DNA of 62,563 bases from Verrucomicrobiota bacterium. Its GTDB lineage: Bacteria; Verrucomicrobiota; Verrucomicrobiia; Chthoniobacterales; UBA6821. The stretch covers positions 1 to 62,563 of the forward strand of contig JAIOPL010000025.1 in assembly GCA_021413925.1 (NCBI GenBank), in the 5' to 3' direction. Position 1 is the first letter of the stretch, and every line of letters begins with the position of its first letter. Positions 16,973 to 24,282 of the stretch are shown here, one piece after another. The notes beneath the pieces were generated by a model. It searched no databases. It was given only the letters and a program-made list of their open reading frames with translations, and was not told the DNA's origin. The translations under genes and the position numbers were made by a program.

Positions 16973-18352
16973 TCACTGGGGAGATGCCAAGAGTGATGGT
17001 GATGACGCGGAGTTCGTGGGCACCACTGAAACAGGAGGATTTGTGCCGGATAAAGAATTCGTCTGCGAAGGTGTTTCCGCTGAGGGTGAGGAAGTCGGAA
17101 GCGGCGTGAGAAGTGGTGGGGGTGTCGGGGTTGGAGTAGGAGTAGGCCATGGTTTTTCCAAGGAGCTCCACTCATGCCATGATGCGGTGTCACTGCCTCC
17201 GAATTCCTTCCAGAGCTGATGGCAGCGCTCGGACCAGTGGGCATAATCCGGTGAGGTAAACGGCTTCTCCGCAGTACCAGGGAAGACAAGATAAACAACT
17301 TCGGGGCGGCTGACGGGGCGGCGATCCGCTCCGGATTCAGGGAAGATCTCTCGACAGATTCTCAGTGAGGCTTCGCCGATCTTGGAGTTCGGCCCCAGAT
17401 CACCCAGGATAGCCGGATAGAGTATTCCCTTCGCGATCACGACAGCGTAGTCGCCGATTTCCGGTTGGCCGGCCGATTTCCCCACCATGAACGAAGGAAG
17501 GACGATAAAGGGGTCGGAAGTTCCCGCAAGGAAGCTCCATCGCTTTAGTTCAGCGATCGTGGCCTTCGCAGCTGTGCAACGAGACTCAAGTGAGGTCTTC
17601 TCACCGGCAGCCATAGTTATGCTGGATAGCTCTGCTTCGGCAAGGGCGAGTTGAGACACTTCATTGCGAAGGCAGGGGTTAGGGCGGTCGCTTTTCTTTG
17701 GCCAGCGGTAATTTGTCTGCGGCTGGAATGTCGAGGAGAGTCGGTCGATGGGAAGATTCCGATCGCCGTCGGATCCGTCTGTATTCACGTTCATGATGGC
17801 CTGGATAAACAGGGCGCGGCGGGAGGTCGCGGGATGACTCAGATCGAGGATCGTCTGGCAATCAAACAGGGAGTCCCGGTAGGGAAGCTTCTGAAGTTGG
17901 CCGAGGTTAGCTCGGAGCGATCTTTCCTTGTAATACAGAAGAGTTGCAAAATTAGGTGACAGGGTCGCATTGGTGAGGAGGGATGTCAGTTCAGGGAGCA
18001 ACTCGATAATCTCCGGGGTGGCAGCCAGCAGGTCGGCTGGGGTTGTTGCTGCTTTGGGCCAATGGACATGCAGGGTGATGTCCATCTTGTAAGAGTTGCT
18101 GTCCGTTACTGCACCCAGCGCGGTTTCCCGTGAGTTAGTGCAGTCGACGCTGCTTTTGAGAGTAATGCCATTGAAAAGCCTCGCCGTGTCGTAATTTTTA
18201 CGCGGCAAGACGGGAACTGGGGTTGGATGTCCGCTTTCTTGATTTAAGGCCTGTTTAGAGGTCTGTTTTTTCGAGCATCCGAGCGGAACGAGAAGTAGTA
18301 CCAAGGCTCCTACCATGCATCCTCGGATCCCGAGAGTTTTTGAGGCCTGCAT
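16973..18352 (-). CDS. Putative lipoprotein with GH75-like (chitosanase-type) domain
   Basis: 459 residues. The N-terminus ends in a lipobox-like LVPLGC (Cys26), so it is probably lipid-anchored. The central region resembles glycoside hydrolase family 75: AIMNVNTDGSDGD (about 185-197), PFIVLPSFM (281-289), GDYAVVIAKG (300-309) and GDLGPNSKIGEAS (317-329). Asp318 and Glu327 sit where GH75 catalytic acids are expected. GH75 enzymes cleave chitosan; the family is best known from fungi but is present in bacteria. The C-terminal ~75 residues are Pro/Thr/Ser-rich low complexity (TPTPTPTPPP). Function as a chitosanase is inference. Confidence 0.65.
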   Translation of the reverse strand: MQASKTLGIRGCMVGALVLLLVPLGCSKKQTSKQALNQESGHPTPVPVLPRKNYDTARLFNGITLKSSVDCTNSRETALGAVTDSNSYKMDITLHVHWPKAATTPADLLAATPEIIELLPELTSLLTNATLSPNFATLLYYKERSLRANLGQLQKLPYRDSLFDCQTILDLSHPATSRRALFIQAIMNVNTDGSDGDRNLPIDRLSSTFQPQTNYRWPKKSDRPNPCLRNEVSQLALAEAELSSITMAAGEKTSLESRCTAAKATIAELKRWSFLAGTSDPFIVLPSFMVGKSAGQPEIGDYAVVIAKGILYPAILGDLGPNSKIGEASLRICREIFPESGADRRPVSRPEVVYLVFPGTAEKPFTSPDYAHWSERCHQLWKEFGGSDTASWHEWSSLEKPWPTPTPTPTPPPLLTPLPTSSPSAETPSQTNSLSGTNPPVSVVPTNSASSPSLLASPQ

Positions 18353-18392: not shown

Positions 18393-20249
18393 TCAAAGGT
18401 AGGCCAGGAAGGAGCCCATGACATCACCTGGGATGTCGATCATCTTGTAATCCGTCGAGGAGACAAAGAGCAGGCTCTGGCTTCCCTTGCCCAGAATGTT
18501 GCCTGTCGAATCGTAGATTTCATGCTCTAGGGTTACAAACTTCCGATTATGCCCTGACACACGGATCTTCACGCTGACTGTTTCAAACTCCTTGGTCTCC
18601 CTGACGAACTTGTGCTCGAACGACCTGGTAAGGATATAGAAAGGGGTCTCCTTGAGATTGAACTTAGGCATGACCTTGTTAAAGAAAAGCTCACGGGTCT
18701 TGCCCACCCACATGGCGTACATGCCGAAATAGACATTTCCCACCGAGTTGGTGTCGGCATAGGTGGCGATGAAGGAGTGAACGAACCACTTGCCCTCGAA
18801 GTGTCCCGAGATGTCATGGGTACCGGTCGGTGAAGGAGTAAGGATGGTCCCCACAGGAGTCAGGGGAACGACGGAGACCGTGGCAGGTTGATCCAGTTCC
18901 TCGGAATCAGTCGTGAAATCCTCGCCGGTGAAGGGCTTGATCATGAGCCAGATCACATATCCTAGCGGAAGAAGTGAGGCCAGCATCTGAAAGATGGGCT
19001 GATGGAGGAAGTAGCCGTAGGCAAAAATCACCACAGCCAGTGATCCGATGCAGAACATCTTGATCTGGGGGATGACGTTGACAGGGCCGTTCATGAAGGC
19101 GCGCCCGATCGCGAGAGCGGAGTAGCCGACAAAGAATGTCGCAAAGAAGATCATGAAATACTCCAACTCGATCCCGATCGCCGCCCCGATGACTGCAATC
19201 AGGGCACAGAGGATGAAGGTAGGGATGGGGGATGTGATGAGTTTCTGGGGGATTAGGGCAAAGATGGGATTCTTGCTCTGGCTGGCGTTGGCCTGGAAGA
19301 ACCAGCGGAGAGCGATATAGCCACTGTCGAGCGTCGTAAGGATGCATCCGCCAAGGAACACGAGATACGCACCGAGCAGCCAAGCATTCACCGGGGGCTG
19401 GCTGAAGACGCGGGTCAGCAGGGACTGGGCATAGGGATAACCTGCCAGTCCTTTCTGGATGAATTCTGCTCCGCTTCCTTCCATCGCCCAGAGAGCCAGG
19501 ATGCCATGGAAAAGAAGAATCGCTCCGAAGAGGGTGGCTCCGACGGCATAGGAGGCCGTGATGGAGGTGTTCTCCCGACGCATCTGGATAGCCCGCTGCC
19601 ATTGCTGAAGGTCAAGCCAAGGTCCCACGATGAAGCCGATACAGATCGGGATCACATAGCCCCAGAAGTTCCAGTCATGAGTCGGCAGTAAGCTCGGGCG
19701 ATGGATTCCGCGGAAGTAGGGAGATCCCAGTTCTGAGATGATGATGACCACGCAGACAATGATCAGCGCGAGGAAGGCGGCGTGGCTGTACTTGATACGC
19801 CGTATGGAGAATTCCTCACCGAATAGAATGCCTGCGGCCAAGATGATAAGTGCCGTCAGCGGCAGGTAGAGGGAGTCTGGCTGCAGTCCTAGGGGCTGCC
19901 ATCCGTAACGGATCAACGCGAAGATGGTGAGTGAGATGGCGATGATCTGGTAGAGGAAAAAAACCAGACGAAACGGGCGCGACCAGTTGTTGAAAAACGC
20001 CGCGAGACTCTCAGAGCCGGGGTGCCTTTTGGCGATGTGATCGGCGACGACTCCGAAAAGGAAGAGACCCAGACAGTTCGGGATTAGGAAGGTGAGCAGT
20101 CCTGTGAGACCGAACTCGACTGTGAACTGAACGGAGAAAAAGAGACCGAGTCCCCAGACCCAAGATAGGGCGACGGTGTTTCCCCAGAGGAGAACATTCA
20201 GGAAACGGAATTGTGGGGAGGAAAGCGTAGGAGTAGCCATGAAGATCAA
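18393..20249 (-). CDS. Multi-spanning permease-like protein fused to a hotdog thioesterase domain
   Basis: 618 residues. Roughly residues 15-450 form about 12 hydrophobic helices with a symporter-like arrangement; the central GPWLDLQQWQRAIQMRRE recalls the D-x-Q-R region of sodium:solute symporters, but I cannot assign the family firmly. After a linker, residues 482-618 are a 4HBT-type hotdog domain: HSFIATYADTNSVGNVYFG, with Asp499 as the likely catalytic acid, then MWVGKTRELFF and a final beta strand GKGSQSLLFV. Hotdog thioesterases hydrolyse acyl-CoA or acyl-ACP. A permease fused to one is unusual; it may couple transport or sensing to acyl-thioester turnover. A second Met four codons in is an alternative start. 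Confidence 0.7.
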   Translation of the reverse strand: MIFMATPTLSSPQFRFLNVLLWGNTVALSWVWGLGLFFSVQFTVEFGLTGLLTFLIPNCLGLFLFGVVADHIAKRHPGSESLAAFFNNWSRPFRLVFFLYQIIAISLTIFALIRYGWQPLGLQPDSLYLPLTALIILAAGILFGEEFSIRRIKYSHAAFLALIIVCVVIIISELGSPYFRGIHRPSLLPTHDWNFWGYVIPICIGFIVGPWLDLQQWQRAIQMRRENTSITASYAVGATLFGAILLFHGILALWAMEGSGAEFIQKGLAGYPYAQSLLTRVFSQPPVNAWLLGAYLVFLGGCILTTLDSGYIALRWFFQANASQSKNPIFALIPQKLITSPIPTFILCALIAVIGAAIGIELEYFMIFFATFFVGYSALAIGRAFMNGPVNVIPQIKMFCIGSLAVVIFAYGYFLHQPIFQMLASLLPLGYVIWLMIKPFTGEDFTTDSEELDQPATVSVVPLTPVGTILTPSPTGTHDISGHFEGKWFVHSFIATYADTNSVGNVYFGMYAMWVGKTRELFFNKVMPKFNLKETPFYILTRSFEHKFVRETKEFETVSVKIRVSGHNRKFVTLEHEIYDSTGNILGKGSQSLLFVSSTDYKMIDIPGDVMGSFLAYL

Positions 20250-20443
20250 CCTACACTAATGACTGATTGCAGCCTCTTCAATCCGAATGGGTACTATAAG
20301 GATTGAAATATGCAAAAGGATTAGGCGAACTCCTGCCGGGAGACTCCTCCCAACTCCTCCCGTTCTTGCAATTGCATTGCAGCAAAGGCACTCTCCTGTT
20401 TTGCCGCCCCCTCCGTGGTAGAACCTCTTCTTTCTCTGAATCC

Positions 20444-21550
20444 TTGAAAATCCTCGACCGGTATCTTCTGACCTCCCTCGCTGTGGCAACGCTGATGGGT
20501 GTAACACTGCTAAGCGTGGTGCTGGTGTTGGGGAATGTCTTCAAGGAGATGCTCGATCTGCTGATCAATCACAACGTGCCGCTTGAGACGGTCCTGGGGT
20601 TTGTTGCCTTTGTCCTCCCTTTCTCGATGACTTTCACGATCCCGTGGGGTTTTCTCACAGCCGTTCTGTTGGTCTTCGGTCGTCTCTCTGCGGATAATGA
20701 AATCATCGCACTGCGCTCCAACGGGGTGAGTTTCCCTAGGGTCTTGATCCCCGTTCTGGCCATGGCGCTCCTGCTTGTCGGGGTCTGTTTCTGGATCAAT
20801 AGTGACGTCGCGCCACGCGCCCAGTACTCGATGCTGTCCTCCCTGTTTCGGATCGCCACGAGCAATCCCGTCTCGATGTTCCAAGCGGACGAAGTTGTCG
20901 ACCAATTTCCAGATCGGAGGATCTTCGTGGGAGGGCGCGATGGGGATCTCATAAAGAATCTCGTGGTCGTGGAGCTGGATGATCATGGGGATGCCTCGAA
21001 GGTGGTCTTTGCAAAGACCGGCACGCTCTCCACGGATACGGAGAATCACCGCCTCCTACTCAGGGTTCAGGATGCCAACTTCGAGCAACGCGACGAAAGG
21101 GATCCTGGAAATGTCAATCTGATCCGCCAGGGCATCACGATGAAGGAGGGGGTCTTCCCGATGTCGCTCCAGAAGCTTCTCGATCAAAAGAAGAGACGCA
21201 AGCCACTCACTTCCCACACGCTCCGGGAGCTTTTTGAAGAGATTTCAAAACCCGACTGTCCGCGCCGGCTTGCCTATGAGGTGGAGGTGAGTAAACGATT
21301 CTCTCTTTCGCTAGCCGCTCTTTCCTTCGCGCTCATCGCAGTTCCTCTTGGTATCACCGCCCACCGCAAGGAGACCTCCGTGGGATTCGCGCTGAGTCTG
21401 GTGATCGCCTTTGGTTATTTCTTCCTGATTATCATCGCCGACACCTTCCACGAGAACCCCCGCGCCATGCCTGTTCTGCTGGTCTGGTTGCCCAATCTCA
21501 TCTTCACGGGATTTGGGATCTGGCTCTTCTCGCGTCTTGCTCGTCGTTAA
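20444..21550 (+). CDS. LptF/LptG family permease
   Basis: About 368 residues from a TTG at 20444 (LKILDRYLLTSL), which fits the family's usual start; the frame is open further upstream to a TTG at 20303, but that part does not look like LptF/G. The N-terminal helices (TLMGVTLLSVVLVLGNVF) and AVLLVFGRLSADNEIIALRS are typical. A periplasmic beta-jellyroll region follows (about 140-260) and three C-terminal helices (KRFSLSLAALSFALIAVPLG). LptF and LptG form the ABC permease that extracts LPS for transport. Only one of the two is here, with no lptB or partner gene next to it. Confidence 0.88.
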   Translation: MKILDRYLLTSLAVATLMGVTLLSVVLVLGNVFKEMLDLLINHNVPLETVLGFVAFVLPFSMTFTIPWGFLTAVLLVFGRLSADNEIIALRSNGVSFPRVLIPVLAMALLLVGVCFWINSDVAPRAQYSMLSSLFRIATSNPVSMFQADEVVDQFPDRRIFVGGRDGDLIKNLVVVELDDHGDASKVVFAKTGTLSTDTENHRLLLRVQDANFEQRDERDPGNVNLIRQGITMKEGVFPMSLQKLLDQKKRRKPLTSHTLRELFEEISKPDCPRRLAYEVEVSKRFSLSLAALSFALIAVPLGITAHRKETSVGFALSLVIAFGYFFLIIIADTFHENPRAMPVLLVWLPNLIFTGFGIWLFSRLARR

Positions 21551-21584
21551 AGATCTACCGATCGTCAACTCACCCTCATTTATA

Positions 21585-22682
21585 ATGCCATCCTCCAAGG
21601 AAATTTCACTTAACGATCCCGCGACCAAAGAAACCATCCGCAAACTTGTCACGGGTATCGCGAGTGGACGCCGTGCGGATCTTCTGAGCGACATGATGGA
21701 GACGGTGATCAAGTATGGCCTTGATGATGCCTCGATCGGGGATCTCAAGCTGGTCAGTCGCTCCATGCGAGAGATGCGCTATGCGGCCTCGGTATTTCAG
21801 GAATACAATACAGTCCGCAAGGTAGCGGTCTTCGGCTCCGCCCGAACCAAGTCTGATGAAGCTGACTTCCAGTTGGCTCGTGAGTTTTCACGCCGGATCG
21901 TCGAGGAGAACTTCATGATCATCACTGGCGGTGGCGATGGTATCATGGGTGCTGCACAGCAAGGAGCCGGCGCAGAAAAGAGCTTTGGCCTGAATATCAG
22001 GCTTCCCTTTGAGCAGAGTGCCAACCAAGTGATCCTAGGAGATCCCAAACTGATTAACTTCAACTATTTCTTCGCCCGAAAGCTCAGCTTTGTGAAGGAG
22101 ACCAGCGCCTTTGTCCTTTTCCCCGGTGGTTTCGGGACGCTCGACGAGGGCTTCGAGGTGCTGACGCTCCTGCAGACGGGGAAGACCTCCATCGTCCCGA
22201 TCATCTTGATGGACAGGCCTAATGGCTTTTACTGGGAGACCTGGCGGCGCTTTATGGATAACGACATCCTCGAACTTGGGCTCATCTCCCGTTCCGATTT
22301 CCATCTCTTCACGATCACGCATGATGTCGATCGCGCAGTGAATGAGATCAAGCACTTCTACAAGGTGTTCCATTCCTATCGCTGGGTCCGTGACGAAATG
22401 GTGATCAGGATCAATAAAAAGCTCACGCCGGCAGCATTGGAAAACCTTAACCAGCAGTTCGATCATCTCCTCATTTCGGGCCATATCGTCCAGCGGGATG
22501 CTCTTCCCGAGGAGGCCGATGACCGCGATTCGATCCATCTTCCTCGTCTTGTGCTGATTCCTCACAAGAGGGAATTTGGAATGCTTCGTCTCCTAATCAA
22601 CGCGATCAACAACTCCCAAGTGATCGAGACCCCTCACGATGAAGCTCTCCGTGCTCCGGGAATTCCTAGCGCCCAGGATTGA
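21585..22682 (+). CDS. LOG family protein (putative nucleotide phosphoribohydrolase)
   Basis: 365 residues from the ATG at 21585 (MPSSKEISL), 35 bp after the LptF/G stop. The Rossmann core holds VFGSARTKSDEADFQLA, ITGGGDGIMGAAQQGA and the family signature PGGFGTLDEGFEVL. The Arg/Lys pair in FARKLSFVKE supports catalysis. LOG proteins release a base from nucleoside 5'-monophosphates (cytokinin activation in plants, probably nucleotide scavenging in bacteria). N- and C-terminal extensions of about 90 and 100 residues make it longer than minimal LOG proteins and closer to the large bacterial type. Confidence 0.87.
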   Translation: MPSSKEISLNDPATKETIRKLVTGIASGRRADLLSDMMETVIKYGLDDASIGDLKLVSRSMREMRYAASVFQEYNTVRKVAVFGSARTKSDEADFQLAREFSRRIVEENFMIITGGGDGIMGAAQQGAGAEKSFGLNIRLPFEQSANQVILGDPKLINFNYFFARKLSFVKETSAFVLFPGGFGTLDEGFEVLTLLQTGKTSIVPIILMDRPNGFYWETWRRFMDNDILELGLISRSDFHLFTITHDVDRAVNEIKHFYKVFHSYRWVRDEMVIRINKKLTPAALENLNQQFDHLLISGHIVQRDALPEEADDRDSIHLPRLVLIPHKREFGMLRLLINAINNSQVIETPHDEALRAPGIPSAQD

Positions 22683-22716
22683 AGAATCATTCTTTCGAGG
22701 ATAGAATGCGGTTTCA

Positions 22717-24282
22717 ATGACGACGAAGGCCAAGGTTTTTCTCTACGACACCACACTGCGTGACGGCACCCAGGGTGAGGGGATCTCTTTCAGCCTGCTG
22801 GATAAGATCCGGATTGCCGAGAAGCTTGCCGGTTTTGGCATGGATTACATCGAGGGTGGATGGCCCGGTTCGAATCCCAAGGATCTCGCATTCTTTGCGG
22901 AGGCTCGGAAACATGATTTCGGGAAGACAAAGATCGCCGCCTTCGGCAGCACCCGTCGTGCAGGGATCAAGGCTTCAGAGGATAACCAATTAGCCCAGTT
23001 ACTGGAGGCGGAAACACCCGTGGTCACCATCTTCGGGAAGAGCTGGAAACTTCAGGTGGATAAGGTGCTGGGGGTTCCCCATGAGGAGAACCTCGCGATG
23101 ATCAGCGATAGCGTGTCCTACCTGAAGTCGTGCGGACGTGAGGTCTTCTACGATGCCGAACATTTCTTCGATGGTTACAAGGATGACGCGGAGTTTGCCT
23201 TGAGAACGCTTGCCGCTGCTGCCGAAGCGGGAGCCGATATGCTCGTCCTCTGCGACACCAACGGGGGCACGATGCCAGAGGAGATCTCAGCAATTACCGG
23301 CGCAGTGGAATCTCGTTTCCCGGGGAAGGTGGGCATCCATACTCATAACGATTGCGGGATGGGTGCTGCTAATGCACTTGCTGCAGTCCATGCCGGTGCG
23401 ATCCAGATCCAGGGGACGATGAACGGCTACGGCGAGCGCACAGGTAACTGCAACCTCACGACCGTGATCCCATGTCTCCAGCTCAAGATAGGCATACCTG
23501 TCGTTCCTGATCTCACGAGACTGAGAGAGGTGTCTCTCTTTGTGGACGAGTTGGCAAACTGCCAGCCTGATGTGCGGGCTCCTTTCGTTGGCAACACAGC
23601 CTTCGCTCACAAGGGGGGGATGCATGTGAATGCGGTGGCCAAGACAGCGGCAGCCTATGAGCACATCGAGCCTTCTGCTGTAGGCAATCATCAGAACATT
23701 CTGGTCTCCGAGCTTTCAGGTCGGAGTAATATCCTTCTCAAGGCTGAGGAGCTAGGCCTAGAACTTACCAAGAGCGACCCTGCCGTGCTCCGGGTGCTGG
23801 AGAGGATCAAGGCCTTGGAATCCGAAGGGTTTGAATTTGAAGCGGCTGATGCCTCACTCGATTTGCTTATCCGGAAGGAACTTGGGCTTCATACCCCACT
23901 CTTCGAGCTGCAGGGATATCATTGTAGCTTCCGCCGTAACGCTGCTGGGTCATCCACAACCTGCGAGGCCACCATCACAATCCTGAACAATGGCCATTCG
24001 CTTGTAATGACAGCCGAAGGAGATGGGCCCGTGAATGCCCTGGATGCCGCCCTCCGCAAGGCCCTGCTGCAGCTTCATCCTTGGATCGCCGGGATCAGAC
24101 TTTCCGATTACAAGGTCCGCATCGTCGATGGAGGAAGAGGGACTGCCGCGCGAACCCGCGTTCACATTCTCTCAAGCGAGGGAGTCGATTCTTGGGGAAC
24201 CGTCGGAGTCTCGGATAACATCATCGAGGCGAGTTGGATGGCGCTGGTTGACTCCCTTGAATACCGCGCCTCAAAGCGTTAA
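22717..24282 (+). CDS. cimA: (R)-citramalate synthase
   Basis: 521 residues. It condenses pyruvate with acetyl-CoA to citramalate, the threonine-independent entry to isoleucine. The N-terminus FLYDTTLRDGTQGEGISF is the HMGL/isopropylmalate synthase signature with metal-binding Asp; the metal-binding His pair is in GIHTHNDCGMGAANALA. The EGGWPGSNPKD motif is characteristic of the citramalate synthase subgroup (TIGR00977-type) rather than LeuA. The C-terminal ~130 residues form the LeuA dimer/allosteric domain, where isoleucine feedback would act. It begins 34 bp after the LOG gene. Confidence 0.92.
   Translation: MTTKAKVFLYDTTLRDGTQGEGISFSLLDKIRIAEKLAGFGMDYIEGGWPGSNPKDLAFFAEARKHDFGKTKIAAFGSTRRAGIKASEDNQLAQLLEAETPVVTIFGKSWKLQVDKVLGVPHEENLAMISDSVSYLKSCGREVFYDAEHFFDGYKDDAEFALRTLAAAAEAGADMLVLCDTNGGTMPEEISAITGAVESRFPGKVGIHTHNDCGMGAANALAAVHAGAIQIQGTMNGYGERTGNCNLTTVIPCLQLKIGIPVVPDLTRLREVSLFVDELANCQPDVRAPFVGNTAFAHKGGMHVNAVAKTAAAYEHIEPSAVGNHQNILVSELSGRSNILLKAEELGLELTKSDPAVLRVLERIKALESEGFEFEAADASLDLLIRKELGLHTPLFELQGYHCSFRRNAAGSSTTCEATITILNNGHSLVMTAEGDGPVNALDAALRKALLQLHPWIAGIRLSDYKVRIVDGGRGTAARTRVHILSSEGVDSWGTVGVSDNIIEASWMALVDSLEYRASKR

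What the first reader, a model, noticed from the sequence alone, without database searches (positions are those of the whole stretch)
18393..20249. Permease fused to a hotdog thioesterase
About 12 membrane helices are followed in frame by a 137-residue 4HBT-type domain with its catalytic-type Asp499. Hotdog enzymes are normally soluble stand-alone proteins; a membrane fusion implies acyl-thioester hydrolysis next to a transported substrate, or sensing of acyl-CoA by a transporter.
Basis: partly seen in the sequence, partly recalled or inferred. Interest (0 to 1): 0.57.

Follow-up and report, generated by a model that had tools for sequence, protein, structure and literature searches.

The report
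Transporter fused to acyl-thioester-cutting enzyme
A bacterial gene really does join a sodium-symporter-like membrane transporter to an enzyme domain that cuts acyl thioesters; the same joined protein is kept in many other bacteria and seems not to have been described, but what it carries and cuts is unknown.

Summary
The fusion is real. The ORF at 18393-20249 (-) has no internal stop; the likelier start is ATG at 20240, giving 615 residues. Residues 10-435 form a 12-helix LeuT-fold permease related to solute:sodium symporters (best match DUR3, Z 30.8), though Pfam's SSF model misses it. A variable 47-69 residue linker leads to a hotdog domain. Of 80 related loci kept, 77 carry both halves in one frame (Chthoniobacterales, other Verrucomicrobiota, Apibacter, Arachidicoccus); the other 3 end at contig ends. 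Methylorubrum extorquens AM1 carries a 33% identical copy. The hotdog is the more conserved half in 171 of 171 pairs compared.
The position of the classical catalytic Asp is an invariant Asn (N498), as in enediyne-type thioesterases (EspE7, CalE7); the Arg matching EspE7 R35 is also invariant.
Some other Verrucomicrobiota carry a related stand-alone permease overlapping or abutting a gene for a probable, different hotdog protein (7 of 7), an independent sign of functional coupling. Own-genome searches rule against menaquinone (no menB) and polyketide (no PS-DH) roles.
Most likely it is a membrane-tethered, cytosol-facing acyl-thioesterase working beside a Na+-coupled carrier. Substrates are unknown; nothing was assayed.

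The parts
18393..20240 (-). fusion gene, 615 aa from the ATG at 20240 (the TTG at 20249 is the first possible start); stop codon at 18393-18395
18936..20213 (-). permease domain, residues 10-435, 12 helices, LeuT fold of the solute:sodium symporter kind
   Evidence: DUR3 9vim_B, Z 30.8, rmsd 3.5 over 396; 25% identity over 308 to a canonical SSF protein
19323..19337 (-). TTLDS motif (residues 302-306) in core helix 8; S/T pair at the position expected for the Na2 sodium site
   Evidence: S/T at 302 and 303 in 19 of 19; aligned to STLDS of an SSF protein; definition of Na2
18801..18935 (-). linker, residues 436-480, low confidence in the model (438-477 under pLDDT 50), 47-69 aa in the 17 relatives aligned, not conserved
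18396..18800 (-). hotdog thioesterase domain, residues 481-615
18747..18755 (-). D496-T497-N498: N498 occupies the catalytic-Asp position of 4HBT/YbgC proteins and matches N17 of EspE7
18693..18695 (-). R516, matching R35 of EspE7
16973..18352 (-). downstream gene, about 40 bp after the fusion: Cys-containing N-terminus (lipoprotein-like by eye) with a GH75 chitosanase-type domain; probably co-transcribed
   Evidence: PF07335, 49.8 bits; found downstream on the same strand in 36 of 89 loci

Best explanation
It is a single-chain transporter-enzyme. A divergent, 12-helix solute:sodium-symporter-like permease, with both termini in the cytosol, carries on a flexible C-terminal tether an acyl-thioesterase domain of the enediyne (E7) hotdog type. 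Because hotdog active sites form between two subunits, the protein should work as a dimer or tetramer, which fits the dimeric state of its nearest transporter structures. I propose that the hotdog hydrolyses an acyl-CoA, acyl-ACP or similar acyl thioester at the inner face of the membrane, close to the mouth of a Na+-coupled carrier for a chemically related solute (most likely a carboxylate), so that the acid and CoA/carrier pools at that site are coupled to transport. SHOWN: the fusion, its conservation, both folds (by model and sequence), the E7-type active-site residues, purifying selection on both halves, and recurrence of a related permease beside another probable hotdog gene. INFERRED: topology, sodium coupling, oligomeric state, catalysis. 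GUESSED: the substrate and the direction of transport.
For: Fusion in one frame in 77 of 80 kept loci, with a 33% identical copy in M. extorquens AM1. Permease: Foldseek and VIA-align 2 put DUR3, CHT1, SGLT and SiaT first among transporters (Z 30.8 to about 24), and BLASTP against an SSF protein gives E 2e-14. Sodium-site hydroxyls kept in 19 of 19. Hotdog: EspE7, CalE7, DynE7 and SgcE10 are the nearest solved relatives by sequence and fold. D496, N498, Y508, W511 and R516 are invariant in 19 of 19. The hotdog is more conserved than the permease in 171 of 171 pairs, and distances in the two halves correlate at 0.90. The linker is variable in length and sequence, which favours a tether over a rigid signalling coupler. 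A related stand-alone permease (hhalign probability 96, E 4.7e-9) has a probable hotdog gene directly upstream, overlapping or abutting, in 7 of 7 genomes found to hold that gene. Lysine and arginine are mostly enriched in the loops predicted to be cytosolic.
Against: No activity or transport has been measured. Na+ symporters normally import, and a thioesterase beside an importer of acids would undo CoA activation rather than help it, so the direction of coupling is unclear. The stand-alone permeases of other Verrucomicrobiota lack the TTLDS motif, so sodium coupling is not general. The catalytic loop (495-500) has pLDDT under 50, and no dimer was modelled. Neighbouring genes differ between lineages, and the GH75 partner is found in only 36 of 89 loci. 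The gene is absent from a 96%-complete relative in the same family (G017) and is rare across the phylum (fused form in 9 of 337 genomes).
Confidence: 0.45

Rival explanations
1. Transporter as sensor: solute or sodium binding in the permease sets the activity of the hotdog enzyme, by analogy with SSS/SLC5-STAC histidine kinases (CbrA, CrbS), where the symporter domain is fused to a cytosolic signalling domain.
For: Precedent for SSS domains fused to C-terminal cytosolic domains (PMC7918813 passages; PMC9100948 abstract). In the stand-alone relatives the sodium-site motif is lost; the Na2 residues are also not conserved in CbrA, which still transports histidine.
Against: No STAC, PAS or kinase domain was found. 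The linker is variable and disordered. The hotdog, not the permease, is the most conserved part.
Confidence: 0.22
2. Hotdog as acyl-CoA sensor: the hotdog domain binds acyl-CoA or acyl-ACP without much catalysis and gates transport, as the non-catalytic hotdog of FapR serves regulation.
For: FapR is a non-catalytic hotdog regulator (PMC516016 abstract). The usual catalytic Asp is absent.
Against: The residues kept are those of active E7 thioesterases, at 19 of 19, and E7 thioesterases hydrolyse without that Asp (recalled from the CalE7 literature, not read here).
Confidence: 0.15
3. The permease is only a membrane anchor and oligomerisation scaffold that keeps an ordinary thioesterase at the membrane.
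For: The permease evolves faster than the hotdog, and the stand-alone relatives have lost the sodium-site motif.
Against: Permease dN/dS is about 0.03, and the core SSS motifs GPWLDLQQWQRA and TLDSGY are invariant in the 18-sequence alignment. A 426-residue transporter is a costly anchor.
Confidence: 0.13
4. It serves a known thioesterase pathway: DHNA-CoA hydrolysis for menaquinone (MenI), or product release from an enediyne-like polyketide synthase.
For: The best NCBIfam hit is MenI_Staph, 30.2 bits against a cut-off of 225. The nearest structures are enediyne thioesterases. A Bacteroidota polyketide synthase carries a fused E7-type hotdog.
Against: menB is absent from all 22 genomes of the window's family. 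PS-DH domains occur in 1 of those 22 and not in the own genome.
Confidence: 0.04
5. Artefact: an assembly chimera or frameshift error joined two genes.
For: None found.
Against: The same junction occurs in 77 of 80 kept loci from separate assemblies, including isolate genomes of Apibacter and Arachidicoccus.
Confidence: 0.01

Closest known systems
Solute:sodium symporter family (SSS, TC 2.A.21, SLC5), nearest solved members DUR3 and CHT1
   Same: LeuT-type core (Z 30.8 to DUR3), QxWQRA and S/T-T-L-D-S motifs, S/T pair at the Na2 position
   Different: Not recognised by Pfam SSF at E 1; aligns only from the first core helix, so the extra N-terminal helix of SSS proteins appears to be missing; carries an enzyme domain
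Enediyne E7/E10 hotdog thioesterases (EspE7, CalE7, DynE7, SgcE10)
   Same: [DE]TNxVGNVYFxxYxxWxGxxRE-like motif, Asn17 and Arg35 equivalents, 27-28% identity to the A. verrucosospora/EspE7 structures
   Different: Fused to a permease; no polyketide synthase PS-DH in the own genome
SLC5/STAC histidine kinases (CbrA, CrbS, RpuS)
   Same: Symporter-type domain fused to a C-terminal cytosolic domain
   Different: No STAC, PAS or kinase; the fused domain is an acyl-thioesterase fold
YbgC/4HBT class I thioesterases and MenI (DHNA-CoA hydrolase)
   Same: Same hotdog superfamily, Pfam 4HBT_2
   Different: Catalytic Asp replaced by invariant Asn; far below the NCBIfam cut-offs; menB absent

Membership tests
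Solute:sodium symporter family (SSS/SLC5) | LeuT-type fold matching solved SSS members | tested here: met
   DUR3 9vim_B Z 30.8, rmsd 3.5, 396 aligned; CHT1, SGLT1/2, SiaT and vSGLT also listed
Solute:sodium symporter family (SSS/SLC5) | recognised by the Pfam SSF profile PF00474 | tested here: not met
   no SSF hit at E up to 1; the own genome's only SSF match is another gene. Hence described as SSS-related, not filed as an SSS member
Solute:sodium symporter family (SSS/SLC5) | two Ser/Thr hydroxyls of the Na2 site in core helix 8 | tested here: met
   S/T at 302 and 303 in 19 of 19; placement by alignment to an SSF protein
Solute:sodium symporter family (SSS/SLC5) | Na+-coupled transport of a solute | not testable with these tools
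   needs an uptake assay
4HBT class I / YbgC thioesterase | catalytic Asp in the D-x-D motif | tested here: not met
   own YbgC-like protein has DTD, fusion has DTN in 19 of 19
Enediyne E7-type hotdog thioesterase | hotdog fold, nearest to E7/E10 proteins | tested here: met
   EspE7, 5vpj, CalE7, DynE7 and SgcE10 lead by sequence and by fold
Enediyne E7-type hotdog thioesterase | Asn17 and Arg35 equivalents | tested here: met
   N498 and R516 invariant; EspE7 numbering set by the R35A mutant 9ccr
Enediyne E7-type hotdog thioesterase | works with an iterative enediyne/polyene polyketide synthase | tested here: not met
   no PS-DH in the own genome; so E7-like domain, not an enediyne pathway member
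DHNA-CoA hydrolase MenI | above the curated NCBIfam score, in a menB-containing genome | tested here: not met
   30.2 against 225 bits; no menB in the own genome
SLC5/STAC histidine kinase | STAC, PAS and kinase domains after the symporter | tested here: not met
   only 4HBT_2 and a sub-threshold 4HBT hit

The most novel reading that the evidence does not exclude
A vectorial transporter-thioesterase: a Na+-coupled carrier whose own cytosolic hotdog domain cleaves an acyl thioester obligatorily linked to the transported solute (for example trapping an imported acyl-pantetheine-like thioester, or releasing an acid for the carrier), a kind of chemically coupled secondary transport that I know of in no LeuT-fold protein.
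Probability: 0.18. Interest if true: 0.78.

Novelty: new variant of a known kind. Interest (0 to 1): 0.5.

Why it matters
Both halves are of known kinds, but I found no description of the combination, and Pfam does not recognise the permease half, so automatic annotation is likely to call the protein only a thioesterase. A conserved transporter-enzyme fusion, plus a related permease beside another probable hotdog gene, makes a concrete, testable case that acyl-thioester hydrolysis and secondary transport are coupled at the bacterial membrane.

Tried and rejected
Frameshift, missed stop or chimera: rejected. The apparent split genes: L111 (probably the G033 permease, same contig position) ends 13 bp before its contig end, and L100, L110 and L036 come from one fragmented bin; these look like assembly breaks, though I did not check where the G033 hotdog lies on its contig.

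MenI role: rejected for this genome (menB in 0 of 22 genomes of the family). Polyketide-release role: rejected for this genome (the own genome has four ketoacyl-synthase matches, but no PS-DH).

GH75 neighbour as clue to the substrate: recorded but not used, because it occurs in only 36 of 89 loci; 4 of the 89 (L124-L127) are second copies of loci already in the set. The luxR/luxI-type genes about 6 kb from the M. extorquens copy may be chance.

Partner protein of the stand-alone permeases: no Pfam hit, no useful PDB sequence hit, one irrelevant sub-threshold NCBIfam hit, low-confidence model (mean pLDDT 52). The Foldseek and VIA-align rows shown are nearly all named thioesterases or the like; for the few with uninformative titles I recall, but did not check, that they are hotdog folds. 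The best E is 1.7e-3 and the best Z 6.2, so 'hotdog' is probable, not proven. My first label 'DUF4442-like' was by eye and no profile confirmed it.

Literature: six searches ran for the combination; none of the listed titles describes it, and two more searches were for CalE7 and for symporter-kinase fusions. The held library lacks most subscription papers. Papers: passages of PMC516016, PMC7918813 (plus its section 10), PMC8918352 and PMC3107222; abstract and outline of PMC9100948; others in listings only. Roles of Asn17 and Arg35 in CalE7/EspE7 catalysis are recalled, apart from the PDB title naming an EspE7 R35A mutant.

Full report
OBSERVATION. The minus-strand frame 18393-20249 is open for 618 codons from a TTG. 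Pfam sees only the C-terminal half (4HBT_2, residues 498-611 in the 618-residue numbering, 34.9 bits, cut-off 25.5; 4HBT below cut-off). NCBIfam gives MenI_Staph, YbgC/FadM and ybgC far below their cut-offs.

IS THE FUSION REAL? Yes. A scan of one genome per species found 101 relatives among 108 pattern matches, 80 kept. In 77 of these 80 one frame covers both domains. The exceptions are L100 and L110, two halves from one fragmented bin, and L111, whose permease runs to the contig end; all three lie at contig edges. In the nearest relatives 36 of 58 genomes, the window's own included, have a match; one of these (G048) is only a canonical SSF protein. Absences include G017, same family and 96% complete. 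In an even sample of the phylum 14 of 337 genomes match, 9 with the fused form and 5 with a stand-alone permease. In the phylum of Arachidicoccus 4 of 395 match: one fusion (G385), three with only a hotdog match. Hence patchy but wide: Chthoniobacterales, 'subdivision 6' Verrucomicrobia, Apibacter, Arachidicoccus and records titled Verrucomicrobiales (titles), and the megaplasmid of Methylorubrum extorquens AM1 (32.7% identity over 96% of the query, the only plasmid record of 72,556).

SELECTION. Against the two 95%-identical relatives L034 and L035 dN/dS is 0.031 (permease), 0.07-0.09 (linker) and 0.019-0.029 (hotdog). Eight relatives were compared in that call; for 5 of them dS was saturated in at least one part (L039, L045 and L048 in all three), and those ratios are not used. 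Across 19 sequences the hotdog is the more conserved half in 171 of 171 pairs, and pairwise distances of the two halves correlate at 0.90, consistent with one old fusion that travelled as a unit.

PERMEASE HALF. An AlphaFold2 model from 18 sequences (mean pLDDT 78.8, pTM 0.67) shows 12 long helical stretches in residues 9-434, a disordered linker (438-477 under pLDDT 50) and a hotdog. Structure comparison gives SSS transporters first: DUR3 (Z 30.8, rmsd 3.5, 396 aligned), then CHT1, SGLT1, SiaT, SMCT1 and vSGLT. The alignments start at about residue 45-90 of those chains, so the extra first helix of SSS proteins seems to be absent here and both ends should be cytosolic. Lys/Arg counts in the loops mostly agree, the two long outer loops being an exception in absolute number. 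BLASTP to a canonical SSF protein from G048 (PF00474 E 3.2e-28) gives 25% identity over 308 residues, E 2e-14, aligning GPWLDLQQWQRA with GSISDQQYWQRA and LTTLDSG with MSTLDSG. SSS proteins bind sodium (Na2) through two Ser/Thr of core helix 8 (PMC7918813 section 10); here positions 302 and 303 are Ser/Thr in 19 of 19. Pfam's SSF profile nevertheless misses it, so I call it SSS-related.

HOTDOG HALF. Nearest solved relatives by profile and by single sequence are the enediyne thioesterases: 5vpj, EspE7 (9ccr), DynE7, SgcE10 and CalE7, and Foldseek agrees (5vpj and EspE7 first, 27-28% identity). The motif reads YADTNSVGNVYFGMYAMWVGKTRE against FADTNLVGNVYFTNYLSWQGACRE of 5vpj. EspE7 mutant R35A (9ccr) fixes the numbering: R35 is R516, N17 is N498. 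The genome's own YbgC-like protein (L001) reads FFDTDAGGVVHNIAY, and D16 of the S. aureus DHNA-CoA thioesterase is a catalytic Asp (PMC8918352 passages; its equivalence to N498 is my reading of the motif, that pair was not shown aligned here). D496, N498, Y508, W511 and R516 are invariant in 19 of 19. More distant stand-alone hotdogs found in the phylum of Arachidicoccus (L129, L130) have DTD, while a PKS-borne one (L128/L136, with PS-DH) has ETN.

INDEPENDENT LINK BETWEEN PERMEASE AND HOTDOG. The five weak permease matches are stand-alone ~390-residue proteins, homologous to the fused permease along 350 columns (hhalign probability 96, E 4.7e-9) but without the TTLDS motif. In all five a ~200-residue gene sits directly upstream, overlapping by 4 bp in four and abutting in L135. 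A search with that partner in 146 genomes of the class found 7, the same five plus G833 and G353, and the permease is adjacent there too (in G353 the partner is cut by a contig end): 7 of 7, but from only two genera. The partner has no Pfam match and a poor model (pLDDT 52). The 50 Foldseek rows shown are nearly all named thioesterases or the like, the rest hotdog folds as far as I recall (best E 1.7e-3), and the VIA-align rows agree (best Z 6.2, within the range the tool warns about). I take it as a probable hotdog of another subfamily. If so, related permeases have been paired with hotdog proteins twice, by fusion and by operon.

CONTEXT. About 40 bp downstream on the same strand lies a GH75 chitosanase-type gene, kept downstream in 36 of 89 loci. 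All 36 are on the same strand, and none is among the Apibacter, Arachidicoccus or Methylorubrum copies. Other neighbours vary: LptF/LptG, a lysine-decarboxylase-like (LOG) protein and an HMGL/LeuA-type synthase gene in the window, different genes elsewhere.

PATHWAY TESTS. menB is absent from all 22 genomes of the window's family, and PS-DH occurs in 1 of those 22 and not in the own genome. So neither menaquinone nor enediyne-like polyketide synthesis explains the domain here.

MECHANISM. Hotdog thioesterase active sites lie between subunits (stated for the S. aureus enzyme in PMC8918352), so the fusion implies at least a dimer; DUR3 and CHT1 entries are described as dimeric. A variable, disordered 47-69 residue linker fits tethering better than rigid signalling. 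The best reading is a cytosol-facing thioesterase held at the mouth of a Na+-coupled carrier. Whether the carrier moves the acid product, a precursor, or acts as sensor is open, hence a confidence of 0.45 for the mechanism although the architecture is near certain.

NOVELTY. Dillon and Bateman's hotdog survey describes fusions to other enzymes in the passages I saw, and the word 'transmembrane' does not occur in its text (PMC516016). The SSS review describes fusions to sensor-kinase domains and does not contain the word 'thioesterase'. None of the papers listed by my searches has a title or abstract start that describes an SSS-hotdog protein. New variant of a known kind.

Noticed in passing
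16973-18352 (-): GH75 chitosanase-type gene with a lipoprotein-like N-terminus, directly downstream of the fusion in 36 of 89 loci; Pfam describes GH75 as fungal chitosanase, so its conservation beside a transporter gene in Chthoniobacterales is odd.
   Followed up: partly
L131-L135, L146, L149: Operon of a divergent SSS-related permease (~390 aa, sodium motif lost) and a ~200 aa protein without any Pfam match, probably hotdog.
   Followed up: partly
L136:7424-13462 (G491): Polyketide-synthase-like protein of about 2013 aa ending in PS-DH, a weak ACPS match and a fused E7-type hotdog thioesterase.
   Followed up: partly
L122:19236-20781: LuxR-type regulator and autoinducer synthase genes about 6 kb downstream of the M. 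extorquens AM1 fusion.
   Followed up: no
L138:7644-11216: 1191-aa protein next to a canonical SSF gene that by eye looks like a caspase-like, NTPase, pentapeptide-repeat and sulfatase-modifying-factor-like mosaic (no profile run).
   Followed up: no
window 20303-24282 (+): Divergently transcribed LptF/LptG permease, lysine-decarboxylase-like (LOG) protein and HMGL/LeuA-type synthase genes; ordinary.
   Followed up: no
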